64,000 bases of DNA from Stenotrophomonas daejeonensis. Its GTDB lineage: Bacteria > Pseudomonadota > Gammaproteobacteria > Xanthomonadales > Xanthomonadaceae. The position numbers and the translations under genes are program-made. A model generated the notes under the pieces. The model did no database searches. It was not told where the DNA came from and saw only the letters and a list, made by a program, of their open reading frames with translations. The stretch's first letter is position 1, and each line of letters opens with the position of its first letter. Below are positions 55,862 through 62,499 of this stretch, in pieces. The stretch lies in the NCBI RefSeq assembly GCF_001431505.1, contig NZ_LDJP01000011.1, forward strand, positions 1 through 64,000, in the 5' to 3' direction.

Positions 55862-55954
55862 GGAGAGGTGTCCGAGTGGTTGAAGGAGCACGCCTGGAAA
55901 GTGTGTAAGCGTCTAAACCGCGCTTCGGGGGTTCGAATCCCCCTCTCTCCGCCA
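55862..55954 (+). tRNA. tRNA-Ser (anticodon GGA)
   Basis: A 93-nt type II tRNA including CCA. Acceptor GGAGAGG pairs with CCTCTCC followed by G and CCA. The anticodon loop CTGGAAA carries GGA (reads UCC/UCU), and the long variable arm and GGTTCGAATCC T-arm are present. Its 3' end is the left attachment site of the adjacent island, and its original terminator now seems to lie at 58903-58927. Confidence 0.96.
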
Positions 55955-55955
55955 G
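55938..55955. repeat. attL core, 18 bp
   Basis: TCCCCCTCTCTCCGCCAG, covering the tRNA-Ser 3' acceptor strand. It is identical to 58877-58894. Confidence 0.85.
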
Positions 55956-56045
55956 TTATCCAATAGGTAGTGGCTCCGGCCAAGCAGTTCCGGAACTACC
56001 CTACTAAAAGACCTACTACGCCTGATGCGCTGGGCTAGGTAGGCG

Positions 56046-56076
56046 AAAAGGCCACCCGTCGAGGTGGCCTTTTTGT
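56046..56076. terminator. Terminator at the island's left end
   Basis: AAAAGGCCACC-CGTCGA-GGTGGCCTTTTT: a strong stem with T-tract. It may now terminate the tRNA-Ser transcript, or may have ended a lost integrase gene. Confidence 0.8.
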
Positions 56077-56118
56077 TGTCTCGACATAGGCGCGAGACGC
56101 ACTGTAGCGTAGCCCCCT

Positions 56119-56622
56119 ATGGATAAATTAGCCGAAAGTCTTGGCCTTCCCGTCTATGTCGGCGTGATCCTAGAACTCGTCGCTGGCCTGCTGCTCGCCT
56201 TGTTCGCCGCTTGGATAGCCGTCTGGCTGACGCGCAACAAGTTCCGCTCGGAGCGATGGTGGGAGAAGAAGGCCGCGGCCTACGAGCGCGTAATCGACGC
56301 CTTTCATAAAGCAAAGCGATACGACGACGAGCATCTGCGCGCAGAAGAGTTGGATATTGCGTTCGATGATGCCCGCAAAGCTCAACTCAATGCCGGCGCT
56401 GCGGAAGCCCGGGACGAGATTCTGCGCTCCGCGGACATCGGCAGCTTCATCCTCTCACCCAAAGCGCTGGAGATTCTGAGCAAATACAAAGATGCATCTG
56501 AGAACATGCCAAGACAGGAATCTTGGTATGAACACCTCGACATGTCATGGTCGATTGCCAACGATCATATGAAGCAGTTCGTCGCCGAAGCGAAGGCAGA
56601 CTTGAAGCGAAAAGCAGACTAA
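56119..56622 (+). CDS. Membrane-anchored hypothetical island protein
   Basis: A 167-residue protein. One membrane helix (VYVGVILELVAGLLLALFAAWIAVWL, about residues 12-38) is followed by a soluble helical region beginning FRSERWWEKKAAAYERVIDA and KRYDDEHLRAEELD. Proteins with this WWEKKAxAYERxI-type pattern occur in prophages and islands, without known function. Codon use is less GC-biased than in the core genes around it. The ribosome-binding site is weak. It is the only plus-strand gene in the island. Confidence 0.65.
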   Translation: MDKLAESLGLPVYVGVILELVAGLLLALFAAWIAVWLTRNKFRSERWWEKKAAAYERVIDAFHKAKRYDDEHLRAEELDIAFDDARKAQLNAGAAEARDEILRSADIGSFILSPKALEILSKYKDASENMPRQESWYEHLDMSWSIANDHMKQFVAEAKADLKRKAD

Positions 56623-56676
56623 CAACAGGCTCCAACACGACCAAGAAAGAGGACTGCCATTGGCAGCCCCCTTGAT

Positions 56677-56955
56677 TTAACGGACCATCCGCTTGTCAGG
56701 CGGATCAGACTCGCGGCGTTGCCGCCACGTCTGCGAACTCCGACTCCACACCACGTCGTCAGGCGTCAACTTTCGGAACTCCTCAAGGATGCCCTTATTG
56801 ATTCCCCAGTTTCGCTGGCGGTTCTTGTACACGTGTTGCTCGCCGAAGGTCATGCGTATGCCGCGCGCAGCGGACGATTGCACCAAACGGTTCTGCCGCC
56901 TGTACTGATCGAGCATCCACCGCGCCACGGCCTTCTCGTCTTCCGAAGGGTTCAT
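56677..56955 (-). CDS. DUF6953-like protein
   Basis: A 92-residue soluble protein resembling DUF6953. Seen: KAVARWMLDQYRRQNRLVQ, SSAARGIRMTFGEQHVYKN, NWGINKGILEEFRKLTPDDV and VWSRSSQTWRQR, the pattern of this small family found in phages and islands. The start at 56955 has a strong GGAGGTGGT ribosome-binding site. Its function is unknown. It is convergent with the membrane protein gene. Confidence 0.7.
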   Translation of the reverse strand: MNPSEDEKAVARWMLDQYRRQNRLVQSSAARGIRMTFGEQHVYKNRQRNWGINKGILEEFRKLTPDDVVWSRSSQTWRQRRESDPPDKRMVR

Positions 56956-57033
56956 ACCACCTCCGATGGCTTGTAGAGGTCCTCGCCCAAGGGGAACGGG
57001 AGGCGCCCCAAAGGGCGCTCCCGGGTGCTGCGC

Positions 57034-57132
57034 TTAGCCCGGAGGGCTGCGCCAATGCTGGCAGACGTACTCCAGACGGCCCTTACGGACCCGGGTATAC
57101 GCGCACACATGCACCGTCTTGGCGTGGGACAT
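57034..57132 (-). CDS. 32-residue hypothetical protein with strong ribosome-binding site
   Basis: The frame MSHAKTVHVCAYTRVRKGRL... ends in QHWRSPPG and is preceded by AGGAGGACTT just before the ATG at 57132, a near-ideal ribosome-binding site. The YTRxRxGRxExVxxHWRSP layout resembles short proteins common in phages and integrative elements. Two Cys residues are present. The function is unknown; the site and composition argue that it is real. Confidence 0.55.
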   Translation of the reverse strand: MSHAKTVHVCAYTRVRKGRLEYVCQHWRSPPG

Positions 57133-57449
57133 AAGTCCTCCTGCAAGCCGGGTTTGTGAGGGCGATATCGGAATTCCAGGTCCCAGGGCGCTATACTCCC
57201 TGTGTTGTACGGGCCGCGGAATCGGCAGAGGGACACCCTCAACTGCCATGCCGTGATGCCGGTACGGAGGTTCGGAACATCGTTGTAGGCACCCTTGCCG
57301 GGGTGTTTCCAACTCCGAACCAACCGCACCAGCGTTTTGCCTACCTAGCGCCTCAACTCAAGCCTGTTTCGCGACGGGGAACTTGAGTTGGGGCGTTGCT
57401 TTGTCTGGGCCACCCGCGGCGGTAGTCAGAGGGTGGCCGCGATCTAATG
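57133..57449. other. Island intergenic region, no confident gene
   Basis: 317 bp. It contains a long inverted pair GTTCGGA (57270) / TCCGAAC (57314), the element GCCTACCTAGC at 57339 (inverse of 56034-56044), and CAACTCAAG / CTTGAGTTG arms near 57353 and 57382. A TATACT-like hexamer lies near 57191. Frames here are short and of biased composition, and none is credible as a protein. Confidence 0.5.
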
Positions 57450-58202
57450 TCATGACGATTCATCCTCCTCTTCCGCTTCCTCCGGGACCTCTTCGGCCAT
57501 CGTGTCGCGGTAGTTCTTCAAGATGAACTCCGTCATCTTGATGACGTTCTCCCACTGCTTCTCCGTCATCTGTCCCGGGAGGTAGATGACGCCATCTTGA
57601 CCGCCGAAGATCGGGATGGGGATGGCCACCATGTCGGCGCGCGGGGGCTTCGGCTTTGCGGGGTCCTGAGACTCTGGAGGCGATTGCGCCGGGGGGATCG
57701 GCGGCAAAACAACCGACTTTGTTTTGCGCTTGCTCGCGCCATTCGATGGCGCCGGGGGAGCCTTCGCGTGCGGACTGATCTTGATACCCGCCTCTTTGGC
57801 CGCCGACAGGAAAAAGCTGATCGACTTCGACAAGGTCGAGCCACTGATTTCGTACTCGCGGAATTTGTCCGCGAGCATGTTCGTCGTAGCACGCTCCAAT
57901 GCAAACGTGCCGTCCGTGATAGCCCTGTAAGAGCCCTCAATCATCCTCTTGAGCATCGCCTTTGCCGACGCCTCGTCGGCAGCGACATACTCATTGAGCA
58001 GCTTGGTCGGGGCGCCAGCCTCATCAATCAGGCCAAACCACTTCATGGTCGCAATCAACGCAGACTGCTCAGAGCCAGAGCGCTTGCTGAGAAAGCTGCG
58101 GTCGATAACCCCGGGCAACACCTCATGGCTGCGCAATTCCTCGATCAAAGCCGTAAAGCTCCGATAGGTCGAGTACGGCGGCTTGATGGTCTTCTCATTC
58201 AT
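57450..58202 (-). CDS. DUF5343 family protein
   Basis: A 250-residue soluble protein with a DUF5343 domain in residues about 7-145 (PYSTYRSFTALIEELRSHEV, LPGVIDRSFLSKRSGSEQSA, MKWFGLIDEAGAPTKLLNEY). A Pro/Lys-rich linker (about 150-195) leads to a C-terminal segment VAIPIPIFGGQDGVIYLPGQ and an acidic tail (EEVPEEAEEEDE). DUF5343 proteins are frequent in mobile and defence-associated regions; the function is unknown. The start at 58202 has GGAAGGA 8 bp upstream. The region before it is unusually AT-rich. It is the largest cargo gene of the island. Confidence 0.8.
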   Translation of the reverse strand: MNEKTIKPPYSTYRSFTALIEELRSHEVLPGVIDRSFLSKRSGSEQSALIATMKWFGLIDEAGAPTKLLNEYVAADEASAKAMLKRMIEGSYRAITDGTFALERATTNMLADKFREYEISGSTLSKSISFFLSAAKEAGIKISPHAKAPPAPSNGASKRKTKSVVLPPIPPAQSPPESQDPAKPKPPRADMVAIPIPIFGGQDGVIYLPGQMTEKQWENVIKMTEFILKNYRDTMAEEVPEEAEEEDESS

Positions 58203-58523
58203 TGTGCCGATCCTTCCTCAGGCCAAAGGTGGCGCGAGTGGCACAAAGATGGCACGCCACGCGGTACAGTGCAACCCCATTCGTTCGCAAATATTGTTAA
58301 TAGATTGTTATTTGTATCTGAATGGACTTGACATAATTTATTTTATGTTTATGCATCAGATACTTACAATTCATTTATCTTTTTCATGTGAAACATGGTC
58401 TAGACCGATTTTTCAAGAGACCCATGCTTCTCGTGACTCAGGCACACGGCTCTCATGGTGTGAGACAACCAGCGAGTAGGCGCCTAGGACCTATTCTCGG
58501 GATCAGGAACGCTATTTGTCTGT
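58203..58523. other. AT-rich region upstream of the DUF5343 gene
   Basis: 321 bp with very low GC (especially 58280-58400), containing runs such as TTATTTTATGTTTATG and a TTGACA at about 58327. No coding frame is supported. It includes the palindrome GGTCTAGACC near 58398. Probably the promoter region of the minus-strand gene plus foreign DNA. Confidence 0.5.
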
Positions 58524-58778
58524 TTACGGAAAAATCCACCGCGGGCTCTCGCCCAGCAGGGAGTGCGGTGCGAAGCGCCAGCCCCGGGAGGTCTGGATAC
58601 GCCCCGCCACGAGGCCGTCAAGCGACGCGGGCCGCAGGCCGTACTCCTCGCGCATTTCGAGCTCGGTCCGCGAGACGATCCGCCCGGACGCGACGTGCTG
58701 CCAACGGTAGGTCCGTTCGTCGCGGTGGAAGCCCCGGGCGCGCTCCCGGTAGGCGGGGTCCACCCACCTGGCCTTCAT
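58524..58778 (-). pseudogene. Homing-endonuclease-like C-terminal fragment
   Basis: The frame from 58778 (MKARWVDPAYRERARGFHRD) contains YRWQHVASGRIVSRTELEMR and GLVAGRIQTSRGWRF, which resemble the DNA-recognition modules (NUMOD-like) found at the C-terminus of phage HNH homing endonucleases. No HNH catalytic region and no ribosome-binding site are seen upstream, so this is most likely a remnant. It lies next to the right attachment site. Confidence 0.45.
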
Positions 58779-58876
58779 CTGCGCGGATACACTGCGCACC
58801 CCGTGGCACACAGCAGGGCACAATTCGGTTTGTGTTTTGCCAGCGAGAACAGGGGGTTAGGCTGGACTCAACTGCC

Positions 58877-58894
58877 TCCCCCTCTCTCCGCCAG
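58877..58894. repeat. attR core, 18 bp
   Basis: TCCCCCTCTCTCCGCCAG, identical to the tRNA-Ser 3' end at 55938-55955. It is followed by the hairpin that probably served as the tRNA terminator before integration. Confidence 0.85.
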
Positions 58895-58902
58895 ATCATG
58901 CG

Positions 58903-58927
58903 AAACCCCTGACTCGTCAGGGGTTTT
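58903..58927 (+). terminator. Displaced terminator of tRNA-Ser(GGA)
   Basis: AAACCCCTGA-CTCG-TCAGGGGTTTTT: a strong stem with T-tract 9 bp after the attR core. At this distance from an intact tRNA 3' end it would be the native tRNA terminator, now separated from the gene by the island. Confidence 0.75.
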
Positions 58928-59031
58928 TCTTTACGCGGAATCCGTATCGGGGCACATGCCAATCAGTGGGAAATCATCGGCCCGGCACGTTGGCCGCTAC
59001 ACTCCCCATCATCGTTTCAATGGTACCCGTC

Positions 59032-59430
59032 ATGTCCGAAATCCTGGTCCCCGTCTCCTTCGGCGAGCTGCTCGACAAGATCACGATCCTGCAGATCAAG
59101 TCCGAGCGCATCAGCGACGCGGCCAAGCTGGCCAACGTGCGCAAGGAACTGGCTGCGCTGGAGGCCACCTGGTCCGCGCATCCGGCCGCGGCCGCGGACA
59201 TCGGTGCCCTGCACGCGGAGCTGAAGGCGGTGAACGAGCAGCTGTGGGACATCGAGGACGACATCCGCCTGAAGGACAAGGCGCAGGCCTTCGACGACGG
59301 CTTCGTCGAACTGGCGCGCAGCGTGTATTTCCGCAACGACGAGCGCGCGCGTATCAAGAAGGCGATCAACCTCGCGCTGGGCTCGGGCTACGTCGAAGAG
59401 AAGTCCTACGCCGACTACGCCGCGCGTTGA
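59032..59430 (+). CDS. DUF6165 family protein
   Basis: A 132-residue soluble protein matching DUF6165: [38 protein letters not shown], then [17 protein letters not shown] and [20 protein letters not shown]. Family members often sit near LPS core or glycosyltransferase genes, as here. The function is unknown. The start is ATG 59032; an upstream in-frame ATG at 59020 is less likely. It is convergent with the GT9 gene. Confidence 0.85.
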
Positions 59431-59441
59431 ACCACCCGTTT

Positions 59442-59511
59442 TGCAGGAGCGACGCAAGTCACGACCTGGCTTTGTCGGGAAAGCCTCGTCGCGACTTTCG
59501 GCGCTCCTACA
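59442..59511. repeat. Palindromic dimer with GCAGGAGCGACGCAAGTCAC arms
   Basis: Left arm TGCAGGAGCGACGCAAGTCA and right arm TCGCGACTTTCGGCGCTCCT are imperfect inverses. The centre GGCTTTGTCGGGAAAGCCTC is the shared connector, itself palindromic. It is a diverged relative of 31151-31220, located between convergent genes. Confidence 0.8.
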
Positions 59512-59518
59512 GGGGGTT

Positions 59519-60565
59519 TCAGGCCAGATGGTCGGCCACGTAACGCTCGAACGCGGCGATGGCATCGTCTACCGTCACCAGATCCATCACCCCGTCGAAC
59601 TCGACCTTGGCGCCCCATTTCAGCGCGCTGGCCGGCTTGTGCAGGAAACGGCGGGCCGCATCGTCGTAGCGGTCCACGCAATAGCGGCGGTCCGAATACG
59701 GGCCGCTGCGCTCGGGGTTGCTGGCCGCATGCAGGCCCAGCACCTTGGTGCCGACGGCGTTGGCAATGTGCATCGGCCCGGAATCGGGCGTCACCAGCAG
59801 GTTGGCGCGGGCCAGCAGCGCCGGCAACTGCTTGAGCGTGTCCTTGCCGACCAGGTCCAGTGCCGGCCCGCGCATCGCCGCGCGGATCGCATCGGTGGTG
59901 CTGCGTTCCAGTTCGCTGCGGCCACCGCACAGCACCACCTTCCAGCCGCGCGCGGCGGCATGGTCGGCCACGGCGGCGTAGCGGTCGGCGCGCCAGTTGC
60001 GGCGGGCATGGCTGGAACAGGGGGAAATCATCAGCACCGGGCGGCCATCGTCCTCCCATTGCGCGCGCGCCCATGCGTGTGCTTCCGGCGGTGTCCCCAT
60101 ATCCCACGCGACGTCGGTCTGCTTCAGGCCCAGCGGTTCGCAGAAGCTGCCGATGGCATCGAGCACGTGGATGCCCGGGCGGTCGGGGATGCGTTCGTTG
60201 ATGAAAAGGCCGTGCAGGTCCTTCGAGCGCGACTTGTCGTAGCCGACGCGTCGCCGCGCCGGGATGAACGCCGACAGCACGTTGGCGCGGAACGCCACCT
60301 GCATCTGCAACAGCGCGTCGAAACCACCCGCCGGCAATTCGCGGCGCAGCGCGCGCATGCCGGCCAGCCCGCTGTTCTTGTCGTAGACGTGGAAGCCGAC
60401 GCCCGGCAGGCCGTCGAGCAGCTTGTGCCCGGCCTTGTCGATCACCCAATGCAGCTCGGCGCCCGGCAGGCCGCGTTGCAGCGTGCGCACCAGCGGCAGC
60501 ACATGGGTCACGTCGCCCAGCGCCGACAGGCGCAGCAGGCACAATGGGGAGGACGTTGCGGGCAT
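59519..60565 (-). CDS. GT9 family glycosyltransferase, heptosyltransferase-like
   Basis: A 348-residue cytoplasmic enzyme of LPS core synthesis (family GT9, WaaC/WaaF-like), probably transferring heptose from ADP-heptose. Seen: the N-terminal [19 protein letters not shown], acceptor-side [18 protein letters not shown], and the donor site [20 protein letters not shown] with the conserved Asp. The start at 60565 (MPATSSPLC) is 21 bp from the divergent kdkA start. Pairing with a Kdo kinase supports a role in the inner core. Confidence 0.9.
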
Positions 60566-60586
60566 GGTGTTGTTAGACTCGCCGGA

Positions 60587-61336
60587 ATGGTCGCTTTCGA
60601 CGCCACTGAAGCGCTGACGCCTTGCCGCGAAGGCCGCGGCCAGGGCGCCATTCTGTTCGACCGCGAATATCTGCGGCAAGCCGAAGCCGCGATGTTCTCG
60701 CCCCCTTGGTGGGGCGACAAGGCGCGGCCGGTGGGTGCCGGCGGCCGCGGCGGCGCATGGTTCGTCAACGCGCCCTTCGGCCAGTGCGTGCTGCGCCACT
60801 ACCTGCGCGGCGGGCTGGCGGCGCGGATCAGCCATGCGCATTACCTGTGGCATGGCGCCAACCGCACCCGCAGCTTCGCCGAATTCCGGCTGATGCGGAA
60901 ACTGATCGCGCAGAAGCTGCCGGTGCCGCGGCCGGTGGCGGCGTTCTACATGCGCGACGGGCTGCGCTACCGCGCGGCCCTCCTGATGGAGCGGCTGGAC
61001 GACGTGCGCTCGCTGGCCGACCGCGCGCTGGTCGCCGGGCGCGGCGCGCCGTGGGAGGAAGCCGGGCGCCTGATCGCGCGTTTCCACCGCGCCGGGCTGG
61101 ACCATGCCGACCTCAACGCCCACAACATCCTGTTCGACGCCAATGGCCGCGGCTGGCTGATCGACTTCGACCGCGGCGTGCTGCGCATCCCCGCCACGCG
61201 CTGGCGCGAGCGCAACCTCAAGCGCCTGCTGCGCTCGCTGCTCAAGCTGCGCGGCGAGCGCAGCCGCGAGGACGTGGAGAAGGATTTCGCGCGCCTGCGC
61301 CGCGCCTACGACCTGGCCTGGAACCGGGGCGTGTGA
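60587..61336 (+). CDS. kdkA: 3-deoxy-D-manno-octulosonic acid (Kdo) kinase
   Basis: A 249-residue kinase-fold enzyme that phosphorylates Kdo in the LPS inner core. Seen: [20 protein letters not shown] as the nucleotide loop, [20 protein letters not shown], the catalytic loop [15 protein letters not shown] and metal-binding [13 protein letters not shown], characteristic of KdkA. A start at 60587 (MVAFDATEA) is consistent with the family. It is followed after 1 bp by the MBL hydrolase gene and is divergent from the GT9 gene. Confidence 0.93.
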
Positions 61337-61337
61337 A

Positions 61338-62105
61338 GTGAGCTGGGCACTGCGTTTCCTTGGCGTCGGCAACGCATCGGCGGTCGAGCTCGGCTCGCCG
61401 ATGGCGGTGATCGAGCGCGACGGCCGGCCGTGGCTGACCATCGACTGCGGCGGCGAGGGCCTGACCGCCTACCACGCGCACTACGGCGCGATGCCCGATG
61501 CCGTGTTCGTCACCCACGTGCACCTGGACCACGTGGCCGGGTTCGAGCGCCTGTTCGTCGATACGTACTTCAACCCGCAACGGCGCGGCAAGGTCCGCGT
61601 TTACGTGCCGGCGCCGGTGGTGCCGCTGCTGCACCGGCGCGTGGCCGACTACCCGAACGTGCTGGCCGAGGGCGGCGCCAATTTCTGGGACGCGTTCCAG
61701 CTGGTCGTGGTCGGCGAGGCGTTCTGGCACGACGGCCTGCGCCTGGAGGTGTTCCCGGTGCGCCACCACTGGCCGGAAACCGCCTGGGGCCTGCGCCTGC
61801 AGGGCGCGCTGGCATGGAGCGGCGACACCCGCCCCATTCCGGAAATGCTGGCCCGTTACGCGGACGATGGCGAACTGGTCGCGCACGACTGCGGCCTGCA
61901 CGGCAACCCGTCGCATACCGGCATCGACGACCTCGAACGCGAATACTCGCCGGAGCTGCGCGCGCGGATGATGCTCTACCACTACGCCAGCGCCGCCGAT
62001 GGCGCCGCCCTGCGCGCGCGCGGGCACCGCGTGGCCGAGCCGGGGCAGTGCGTGGTGCTGGCCGCACCCACTGCAGCGCAGGCGGAGCCATTCGCTTCCC
62101 CGTAG
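61338..62105 (+). CDS. MBL-fold metallohydrolase
   Basis: A 255-residue cytoplasmic metallo-beta-lactamase-fold protein. Seen: the metal motif TVH-type FVTHVHLDHVAGFERL (HxHxDH), a later HDGLRLEVFPVRHHWPET, AWSGDTRPIPEML (Asp ligand) and GNPSHTGIDD. It resembles the RNase Z/phosphodiesterase-like branch but lacks tRNA-binding arms. The substrate is unknown. It starts at GTG 61338, one base after kdkA, suggesting co-transcription. Its TAG stop is part of a GTAG repeat border. Confidence 0.85.
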   Translation: MSWALRFLGVGNASAVELGSPMAVIERDGRPWLTIDCGGEGLTAYHAHYGAMPDAVFVTHVHLDHVAGFERLFVDTYFNPQRRGKVRVYVPAPVVPLLHRRVADYPNVLAEGGANFWDAFQLVVVGEAFWHDGLRLEVFPVRHHWPETAWGLRLQGALAWSGDTRPIPEMLARYADDGELVAHDCGLHGNPSHTGIDDLEREYSPELRARMMLYHYASAADGAALRARGHRVAEPGQCVVLAAPTAAQAEPFASP

Positions 62106-62171
62106 ATGTCGGGCTTGCCCGGCACGGGGCCTTGCCGGGAAGGCTTCATGCGGGGCAAGCCCCGCATCTAC
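62102..62171. repeat. GTAG palindromic dimer (CGGGCTTGCCCGGCA/GGGGCAAGCCCC arms)
   Basis: Runs from GTAGATGTCGGGCTTGCCCG through GGGGCCTTGCCGGGAAGGCT to GGGGCAAGCCCCGCATCTAC. The GTAG includes the stop of the MBL gene. It lies before the minus-strand SRP RNA gene and may terminate both transcripts. Confidence 0.88.
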
Positions 62172-62222
62172 AGCATGCCCAATAGCACATGCTACGGCAG
62201 TTGGCAGGCCCGAAAAGGTGGC

Positions 62223-62324
62223 GGCCCCGCCGGCTGACCTCGGCGCCCGCGTCAGTCGATACCGTTGCTGCCTTCCGGCCCTGGCGGGATTTTCGACCTA
62301 GCGTCGCGAGGGGCCGACGGGGCC
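62223..62324 (-). ncRNA. ffs: Signal recognition particle RNA (4.5S)
   Basis: On the minus strand the sequence contains GCCAGGGCCGGAAGGCAGCA, the conserved SRP RNA apical loop and Ffh-binding symmetric loop. The ends GGCCCCGTCGGC and GCCGGCGGGGCC pair as the terminal helix. About 102 nt in hairpin form, the normal bacterial size. It functions with Ffh in membrane targeting of nascent proteins. tRNA-Ser(CGA) lies upstream in the same orientation. Confidence 0.92.
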
Positions 62325-62408
62325 ACCATAGACGCAGGCCGCGCAGTGCGCGGCCCGGTTTCGATGTTCCGCGCAGCATTGCGCGGGGTTGCGAGAAACT
62401 CGCGTGTC

Positions 62409-62499
62409 TGGCGGGAAGGGGGGGATTCGAACCCCCGATGCGCTATAAACGCATGCCTGATTTCGAGTCAGGTACATTCAACCACTCTGCCACCTTCCC
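62409..62499 (-). tRNA. tRNA-Ser (anticodon CGA)
   Basis: A 91-nt type II tRNA including CCA on the minus strand. Acceptor GGGAAGG pairs with CCTTCCC followed by G and CCA. The anticodon stem-loop CCTGA-CTCGAAA-TCAGG gives anticodon CGA (reads UCG). The long variable arm and GGTTCGAATCC T-arm are present. It lies 84 bp upstream of ffs; the palindrome CCGCGCAGCATTGCGCGG near 62369 could separate the transcripts. Confidence 0.95.

What the first reader, a model, noticed from the sequence alone, without database searches (positions are those of the whole stretch)
55938..58894. tRNA-Ser(GGA) island with exact 18-bp att repeats but no integrase
TCCCCCTCTCTCCGCCAG at the tRNA 3' end recurs exactly at 58877-58894. 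The tRNA's likely native terminator now lies just beyond the right copy, as expected after site-specific integration. The 3-kb interior has lower GC and carries a membrane protein, DUF6953, a 32-residue protein, DUF5343 and an endonuclease-like fragment, but no recombinase. It may be a decayed island or a satellite-type element mobilised in trans; the cargo is uncharacterised and of the kind often found in defence or phage-satellite contexts.
Basis: partly seen in the sequence, partly recalled or inferred. Interest (0 to 1): 0.68.

Follow-up and report, generated by a model that had tools for sequence, protein, structure and literature searches.

The report
Decayed phage satellite with conserved RNA
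A 2.9-kb stretch next to a serine tRNA gene is the stump of a 12-13 kb mobile element that seems built to travel in other viruses' particles; it has lost its integration and packaging genes but keeps an intact protein, structured-RNA and micropeptide cassette that looks like a phage-exclusion device.

Summary
tRNA-Ser(GGA) and two exact 18-bp copies (55938-55955, 58877-58894) bound a low-GC 2.9-kb insert. A close relative has the empty site. The insert is the cargo end of a larger element. In another Xanthomonadaceae genus an intact-looking 12.8-kb relative sits in the same tRNA with matching att repeats and a nearly identical attL arm. It carries a tyrosine integrase, AlpA, VapE-type primase, resolvase and large terminase subunit, but no recognisable capsid or tail gene. 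This suggests a phage satellite with its own terminase. In the window a deletion runs from inside the gene next to DUF5343 to attR, removing the mobility genes; no related integrase was found in the genome.

The retained cargo (DUF5343, about 210 nt of divergently oriented structured RNA, 32-aa p32, DUF6953) is open and DUF5343 is under purifying selection. It recurs at tRNA ends in at least seven other genomes of two families. In the intact relative the same slot holds a Type II restriction-modification system. DUF5343 matches a PADLOC defence candidate. p32 recurs in lambdoid phages between cI and N, again beside a structured segment. I infer a phage-exclusion or immunity cassette with an RNA component. 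Function, transcription and helper phage are untested.

The parts
55862..55954 (+). tRNA-Ser(GGA), integration target, reconstituted by the insert
   Evidence: ARAGORN; identical 94-mer in most of 61 genus genomes
55938..55955 (+). attL core, TCCCCCTCTCTCCGCCAG, tRNA 3' end
   Evidence: the same tRNA 3' end forms the repeats of G103 and G224
55956..56080 (+). attL arm with repeated TAGGTA/CCTACT motifs (probable integrase arm sites) and a GGCCACC hairpin with a T run
   Evidence: 94% identical in G103, 93% in G540, 85% in G224
56119..56622 (+). ORF1, 167-aa predicted membrane-anchored protein; variable cargo slot
   Evidence: phrog_17948 E 2e-7; replaced by ParA, a 253-aa protein, a Zn-type protein or HNH-like p119 in other elements
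56677..56955 (-). DUF6953 protein, 92 aa
   Evidence: PF22266 E 7e-26
57034..57132 (-). p32, 32-aa basic micropeptide (VHVxAYxRxRxGxLExVxxHxRSxP)
   Evidence: phrog_21154 E 1.6e-8; alignment A4; lambdoid phage homologs
57185..57201 (.). palindrome AGGG-N-TATA-N-CCCT over a -10-like box; probable operator/promoter of the RNA
   Evidence: covarying arms, e.g. AAAGAGTTATACTCTTT in G298
57198..57408 (+). putative structured small RNA, divergent from p32, convergent with DUF5343
   Evidence: fold z -5.0; 80-83% identical where DUF5343 synonymous sites are saturated; no Rfam match
57347..57403 (+). long terminator-like hairpin ending the RNA
   Evidence: stem kept in all six sequences
57450..58202 (-). 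DUF5343 protein, 250 aa; helical (winged-helix-like) N domain, linker, beta-beta-alpha C domain
   Evidence: PF17278 E 5.7e-8; PADLOC PDC-M34A E 7e-7; model pLDDT 70.6
58524..58790 (-). 3' remnant of the parent element's 144-aa gene; 5' 40% deleted
   Evidence: 88% nt identity to G103 and G119 copies
58791..58876 (.). 86 bp of unmatched sequence at the deletion junction
   Evidence: no match in any fetched locus
58877..58894 (+). attR core, exact copy of attL core
58896..58926 (+). native tRNA terminator displaced by the insert
   Evidence: follows the tRNA directly in the empty site of G042

Best explanation
The segment is the cargo end of a 12-13 kb integrative element of Xanthomonadales that uses tRNA 3' ends, here tRNA-Ser(GGA), as attB. 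Shown by comparison: it inserted site-specifically; relatives carry integrase, AlpA, primase, resolvase and their own large terminase subunit but no recognisable capsid or tail gene; the window copy lost everything from inside the 144-aa gene to the right arm and cannot supply its own integrase. Inferred: intact relatives are phage satellites that replicate their own DNA, cut and package it with their own terminase and borrow a helper phage's capsid. Inferred: the retained DUF5343 / structured RNA / p32 / DUF6953 cassette is the satellite's phage-exclusion or immunity cargo. In that model DUF5343 is a nucleic-acid-binding protein, and the RNA, transcribed toward it from an operator-controlled promoter, restrains or guides it together with p32 until a competing phage disturbs the balance. 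The integrase loss fixes the remnant in place; selection keeps the cassette. I put about 0.85 on the decayed-element part, 0.7 on satellite ancestry and 0.45 on the exclusion role.
For: Empty site colinear with the joined flanks. Same tRNA and att core in G224 and G103; attL arm 93-94% identical in G103 and G540. Synteny of G103, G119 and Arenimonas elements. TerL E 1e-27, AlpA, VapE-type primase, integrase, DUF5906 primase. No capsid or tail family among scanned proteins. Integrase relative absent from own genome with positive controls. DUF5343 open with dN/dS 0.07-0.26 in repeated remnants. R-M genes in the same slot in G103. PDC-M34A hits for five DUF5343 homologs. RNA fold z -5.0 and constraint. 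p32 neighbours structured segments in 7 of 9 loci, against 2% of background windows.
Against: No helper phage, excision, packaging or transcription was shown. TerS is named from position only (no family hit). p252 and p144 have no known fold and could be structural. PDC-M34A is itself only a candidate and the hits are weak (18-30 bits). Structural matches are below Z 6. No -35 box matches the consensus near the RNA. The 86-bp junction matches nothing, so the right att copy could come from a second, different element.
Confidence: 0.6

Rival explanations
1. It is the remnant of an ordinary small temperate prophage, not a satellite; the intact relatives are themselves deleted prophages that lost head and tail genes.
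For: Terminase, primase, integrase and HTH genes are also prophage genes; G105 (L087) has a related TerL element with a Gp13-like major capsid gene.
Against: G103, G119 and Arenimonas keep the same compact 12-13 kb gene order with conserved TerL (80-97%) and no recognisable structural gene; a random deletion would not be shared across genera.
Confidence: 0.15
2. The DUF5343 / RNA / p32 cassette is a lysogeny or replication control module of the satellite (an immunity RNA like that of P4), not anti-phage cargo.
For: The RNA has a terminator and an operator-like palindrome; lambdoid relatives of p32 lie between cI and N; DUF5343 has a DNA-binding-like N domain.
Against: G103 has an intact-looking element without it, with R-M genes in that slot; it is kept when replication and integration genes are lost.
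Confidence: 0.3
3. The insert is non-functional debris; retention of the tRNA-proximal end reflects only deletion bias.
For: The p144 copy is truncated; some remnants elsewhere carry further damage: the DUF5343 frame is split in Arenimonas and p144 is broken in G540.
Against: DUF5343, p32 and DUF6953 are open in the window and DUF5343 dN/dS is 0.07-0.26; RNA identity stays 80-83% at saturated synonymous divergence. Selection could however have acted mostly in intact elements before decay.
Confidence: 0.15

Closest known systems
Phage-inducible chromosomal islands (PICI) of Gram-negative bacteria
   Same: Integrase, AlpA-type regulator, primase, 12-13 kb, site-specific att repeats, no tail genes, anti-phage cargo
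   Different: Relatives carry a large terminase subunit and a serine resolvase; no TerS family was recognised; helper unknown
Capsid-forming PICI (cfPICI)
   Same: Encode their own packaging genes
   Different: No capsid, portal or head-tail gene was found in G103 or G119; a related TerL element in G105 does carry a capsid gene
P4-like satellites
   Same: Integrase, AlpA, primase-helicase, an RNA beside regulatory genes, cargo slot
   Different: No Psu, Sid or delta hit in the proteins scanned; own TerL; the RNA matches no Rfam family
PADLOC phage defence candidate PDC-M34
   Same: DUF5343 proteins match the A component
   Different: No match to a second component in the window; the match is weak and the candidate is untested
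Region between cI and N of lambdoid phages (Salmonella phage Oslo, Escherichia phi-8)
   Same: Protein gene, then about 178 nt of conserved structured spacer, then the p32 relative, in the slot that in lambda holds rexAB (from memory)
   Different: The protein (AMBK_51) is not demonstrably related to DUF5343 and the spacers share no detectable sequence
svsR, prophage sRNA limiting coliphage infection (PMC12803456)
   Same: A lambdoid prophage RNA that protects against phage
   Different: svsR is co293-like and lies at the 3' end of cI; it is not this RNA

Membership tests
tRNA-targeted site-specific integrative element | Direct repeat made of the tRNA 3' end flanking the insert | tested here: met
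tRNA-targeted site-specific integrative element | Empty site in a relative | tested here: met
   G042
tRNA-targeted site-specific integrative element | Integrase inside the element | tested here: not met
   absent in the window copy and no relative in the own genome; present in G103 and G119, so the window is a remnant
Phage satellite (parent element, G103/G119) | Integration plus replication genes, 7-20 kb | tested here: met
Phage satellite (parent element, G103/G119) | Packaging gene or signal | tested here: met
   TerL
Phage satellite (parent element, G103/G119) | No virion structural genes | tested here: inconclusive
   no structural family found, but p252, p144 and p100 are of unknown fold
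Phage satellite (parent element, G103/G119) | Transfer in a helper phage's particles | not testable with these tools
   needs induction with a helper
Capsid-forming PICI | Own capsid morphogenesis genes | tested here: not met
   none recognised in G103 or G119
P4-like satellite | Sid/Psu/delta genes | tested here: inconclusive
   no PHROG hit of that kind in scanned proteins; not every ORF was scanned
PDC-M34 defence candidate | A component (DUF5343-like) | tested here: met
   E 1.4e-7 to 9e-4
PDC-M34 defence candidate | Second component next to it | tested here: not met
   no other window protein matched PADLOC
PDC-M34 defence candidate | Protection against phage | not testable with these tools
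   needs plaque assays
Known Rfam RNA family | Match at gathering score | tested here: not met
   no Rfam match at 57198-57408 even at E up to 5

The most novel reading that the evidence does not exclude
A three-part device made of a DNA-binding-type protein, a divergently transcribed structured RNA and a 32-41 aa micropeptide is carried by phage satellites of Xanthomonadales and, with a different protein partner, by lambdoid phages between cI and N. It would be a new class of RNA-containing phage-exclusion system, in which the micropeptide and RNA form a portable core and the protein is exchangeable.
Probability: 0.25. Interest if true: 0.85.

Novelty: new variant of a known kind. Interest (0 to 1): 0.58.

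Why it matters
It defines a family of Xanthomonadales elements that look like phage satellites with their own large terminase subunit, and shows that their cargo end repeatedly outlives their mobility genes. If the DUF5343 / RNA / p32 cassette excludes phages, it links a structured RNA and a micropeptide conserved between satellites and lambdoid phages to immunity, and makes the function of several unknown families (DUF5343, DUF6953, phrog_21154) directly testable.

Tried and rejected
Phage records: no match to the insert DNA, DUF5343, DUF6953 or the RNA; plasmids: none for DUF5343. DUF5343 in viral contigs: none. NCBIfam: no hit. DUF5343 versus AMBK_51: not significant whole or for the C-terminal domain, where shuffled controls score as high, so the resemblance by eye is not used as evidence. 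Foldseek PDB and viral libraries: nothing at E<=0.001; the VIA second look gives BrxA, N.BspD6I, 3bhw and PaqCI at Z 4.7-5.7, taken only as a hint of a tandem winged-helix arrangement. Complementarity between the RNA's CCUACCUAGC loop and the attL arm was considered; it is not conserved in G224 and was dropped. The 100% RNA identity with Pseudoxanthomonas was first read as constraint; the adjacent p32 is also 100% identical at the DNA level, so recent recombination explains it, and only the 80-83% comparisons are used for constraint. svsR (PMC12803456) was checked and is a different RNA. No paper in the held library mentions DUF5343 or DUF6953.
Full report
OBSERVATION. tRNA-Ser(GGA) lies at 55862-55954. 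Its 3' end TCCCCCTCTCTCCGCCAG recurs exactly at 58877-58894; even with three mismatches only 0.08 matches are expected in the window. GC drops from about 70% to 49-62% between the copies. DUF6953, DUF5343 and a 32-aa ORF are present and there is no recombinase.

EMPTY SITE. In G042, a genome of the same genus, the joined flanks of the window align colinearly over 477 columns at 89%, with one tRNA and the AAACCCCTGACTCGTCAGGGGTTT terminator directly behind it. The insert is therefore an addition and the terminator is native.

PARENT ELEMENT. DUF5343 relatives occur in 8 of 247 family genomes, own genome included. In Xanthomonas sp. GPE 39 (G224, L044; name) a related insert lies at the same tRNA with a second CCCCTCTCTCCGCCAG copy 6 kb away; it has a truncated integrase fused into terminase sequence. 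In G103 (L085), another genus, the same tRNA carries a 12.8-kb insert between AACTGGCGGAGAGAGGG repeats. It holds a full integrase (Arm-DNA-bind_3, Phage_int_M, Phage_integrase), AlpA, a VapE-type primase, a resolvase and TerL relative (phrog_2 E 1.6e-27), then p100, p252 and p144, and finally a cargo slot. In Pseudoxanthomonas broegbernensis (G119, L065) a 12.5-kb element between 46-bp tRNA-end repeats has the same block plus DUF5343, RNA, p32 and DUF6953. Arenimonas daejeonensis (L093) has the full order at tRNA-Thr with a broken integrase frame. No scanned protein matched a capsid, portal or tail family. TerL is at most 30% identical to phage records.

WHAT HAPPENED IN THE WINDOW. The attL arm (55956-56080) is 94% identical to G103's and 93% to that of G540 in another family, where the element uses tRNA-Ser(TGA). 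The p144 homolog is cut at about 58790, followed by 86 bp without a match and attR. The segment missing relative to the parent includes p252, TerL, primase, AlpA and integrase. The own genome has no relative of the cognate integrase at E<=0.001, while five of six other genomes searched with the same query gave hits. Self-mobility is lost; mobilisation in trans by a resident integrase of this family is unlikely.

THE RETAINED CASSETTE. Remnants in the window, G540, G566, G208 and G298, and the partly deleted G224 element, all keep the tRNA-proximal end: a variable gene, p32, the RNA-like segment and DUF5343, four of the six with DUF6953 as well. DUF5343 has dN/dS 0.07-0.26 with synonymous sites near saturation. 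At that divergence the non-coding segment 57198-57408 is still 80-83% identical, more than the DUF5343 coding sequence at 66-73%. It folds with z -5.0 on the plus strand and -3.3 on the minus strand. It ends in a long hairpin with a T run and begins at a palindrome whose arms covary (AGGG..CCCT, AAAG..CTTT). Covariation inside the RNA is otherwise modest: the whole-alignment covariation term is slightly unfavourable. Short forms lack the middle domain. It has no Rfam match. The near-identity with Pseudoxanthomonas (100%) extends into p32 and reflects recent recombination, not constraint. Transcription is not shown and no -35 consensus was found.

LINKS TO DEFENCE. The intact G103 element carries a Type II methyltransferase (E 1.5e-101) and a restriction enzyme (E 1.2e-30) in the same slot. 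All five DUF5343 homologs tested match PADLOC PDC-M34A, E 1.4e-7 to 9e-4. The predicted DUF5343 N domain (mean pLDDT 70.6) resembles BrxA and restriction/nickase DNA-recognition domains at Z 4.7-5.7, below the level that would establish a fold. In another gammaproteobacterium the p32 relative sits beside an RmrA-type gene and a PIN-type gene. These are associations.

p32 ELSEWHERE. p32 relatives (15 invariant positions) occur in Salmonella phage Oslo and Escherichia phi-8 between cI and N. All 15 viral contigs found have the same 172-173 aa gene upstream. The spacer between them is nearly invariant, including a hairpin loop present in both orientations, while the protein is 78% identical. In nine diverse p32 loci, the 250 nt upstream fold with z<=-3.5 on the strand leading away from p32 in seven; only 2% of 90 control windows do. 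The opposite strand is often structured too, so a structured leader of the p32 mRNA is a live alternative. Clear terminators on the strand leading away from p32 were seen in three loci besides the window family. A homology between the lambdoid protein and DUF5343 was tested and not supported.

MECHANISM. Shown: site-specific insertion, shared ancestry with 12-13 kb elements carrying terminase and integrase, deletion of mobility genes, purifying selection on DUF5343 across elements. Inferred: helper-dependent packaging with an own terminase, and a phage-exclusion role of the cassette. The most likely working is that DUF5343 acts on nucleic acid, the RNA (convergent with its gene) and p32 modulate it, and the palindrome sets RNA output. 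The alternative that the cassette is a satellite lysogeny switch remains open, but the intact G103 element lacks it.

NOVELTY. Satellites, tRNA islands and their decay are known (PMC11389934). New here, as far as the searches reach, are a Xanthomonadales element family with its own TerL and no recognised structural gene, and a conserved protein/RNA/micropeptide cassette without any description in the held literature.

Noticed in passing
55862-62499: The interval between tRNA-Ser(GGA) and tRNA-Ser(CGA) is inverted in the window and G042 relative to 12 other genus members and Xanthomonas; the two tRNA genes lie in opposite orientation and may be the recombination points.
   Followed up: partly
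tRNA-Ser(GGA) locus, genus-wide: The distance between the two tRNA-Ser genes ranges from 3.4 to about 79 kb among genus members, so the locus looks like an insertion hotspot.
   Followed up: no
L027, L029, L030: A second copy of the att motif lies about 190 bp from the tRNA in three genomes, possible minimal scars.
   Followed up: no
G119:C1:691823-717300: Two elements sit in tandem, sharing three tRNA-end repeats.
   Followed up: partly
L087:8039-9034: A related TerL element in G105 carries a Gp13-like major capsid gene, possibly capsid-forming.
   Followed up: no
L131:3131-4911: The p32 relative lies beside an RmrA-type gene and a PIN-type gene.
   Followed up: partly
L132:3217-3490: The spacer upstream of p32 contains a tRNA-like segment on the minus strand and a strong terminator.
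   Followed up: no
62207-62361: A stretch 90-97% conserved across the genus and in Xanthomonas near tRNA-Ser(CGA) looks like a 4.5S/SRP RNA gene (identification from memory).
   Followed up: no
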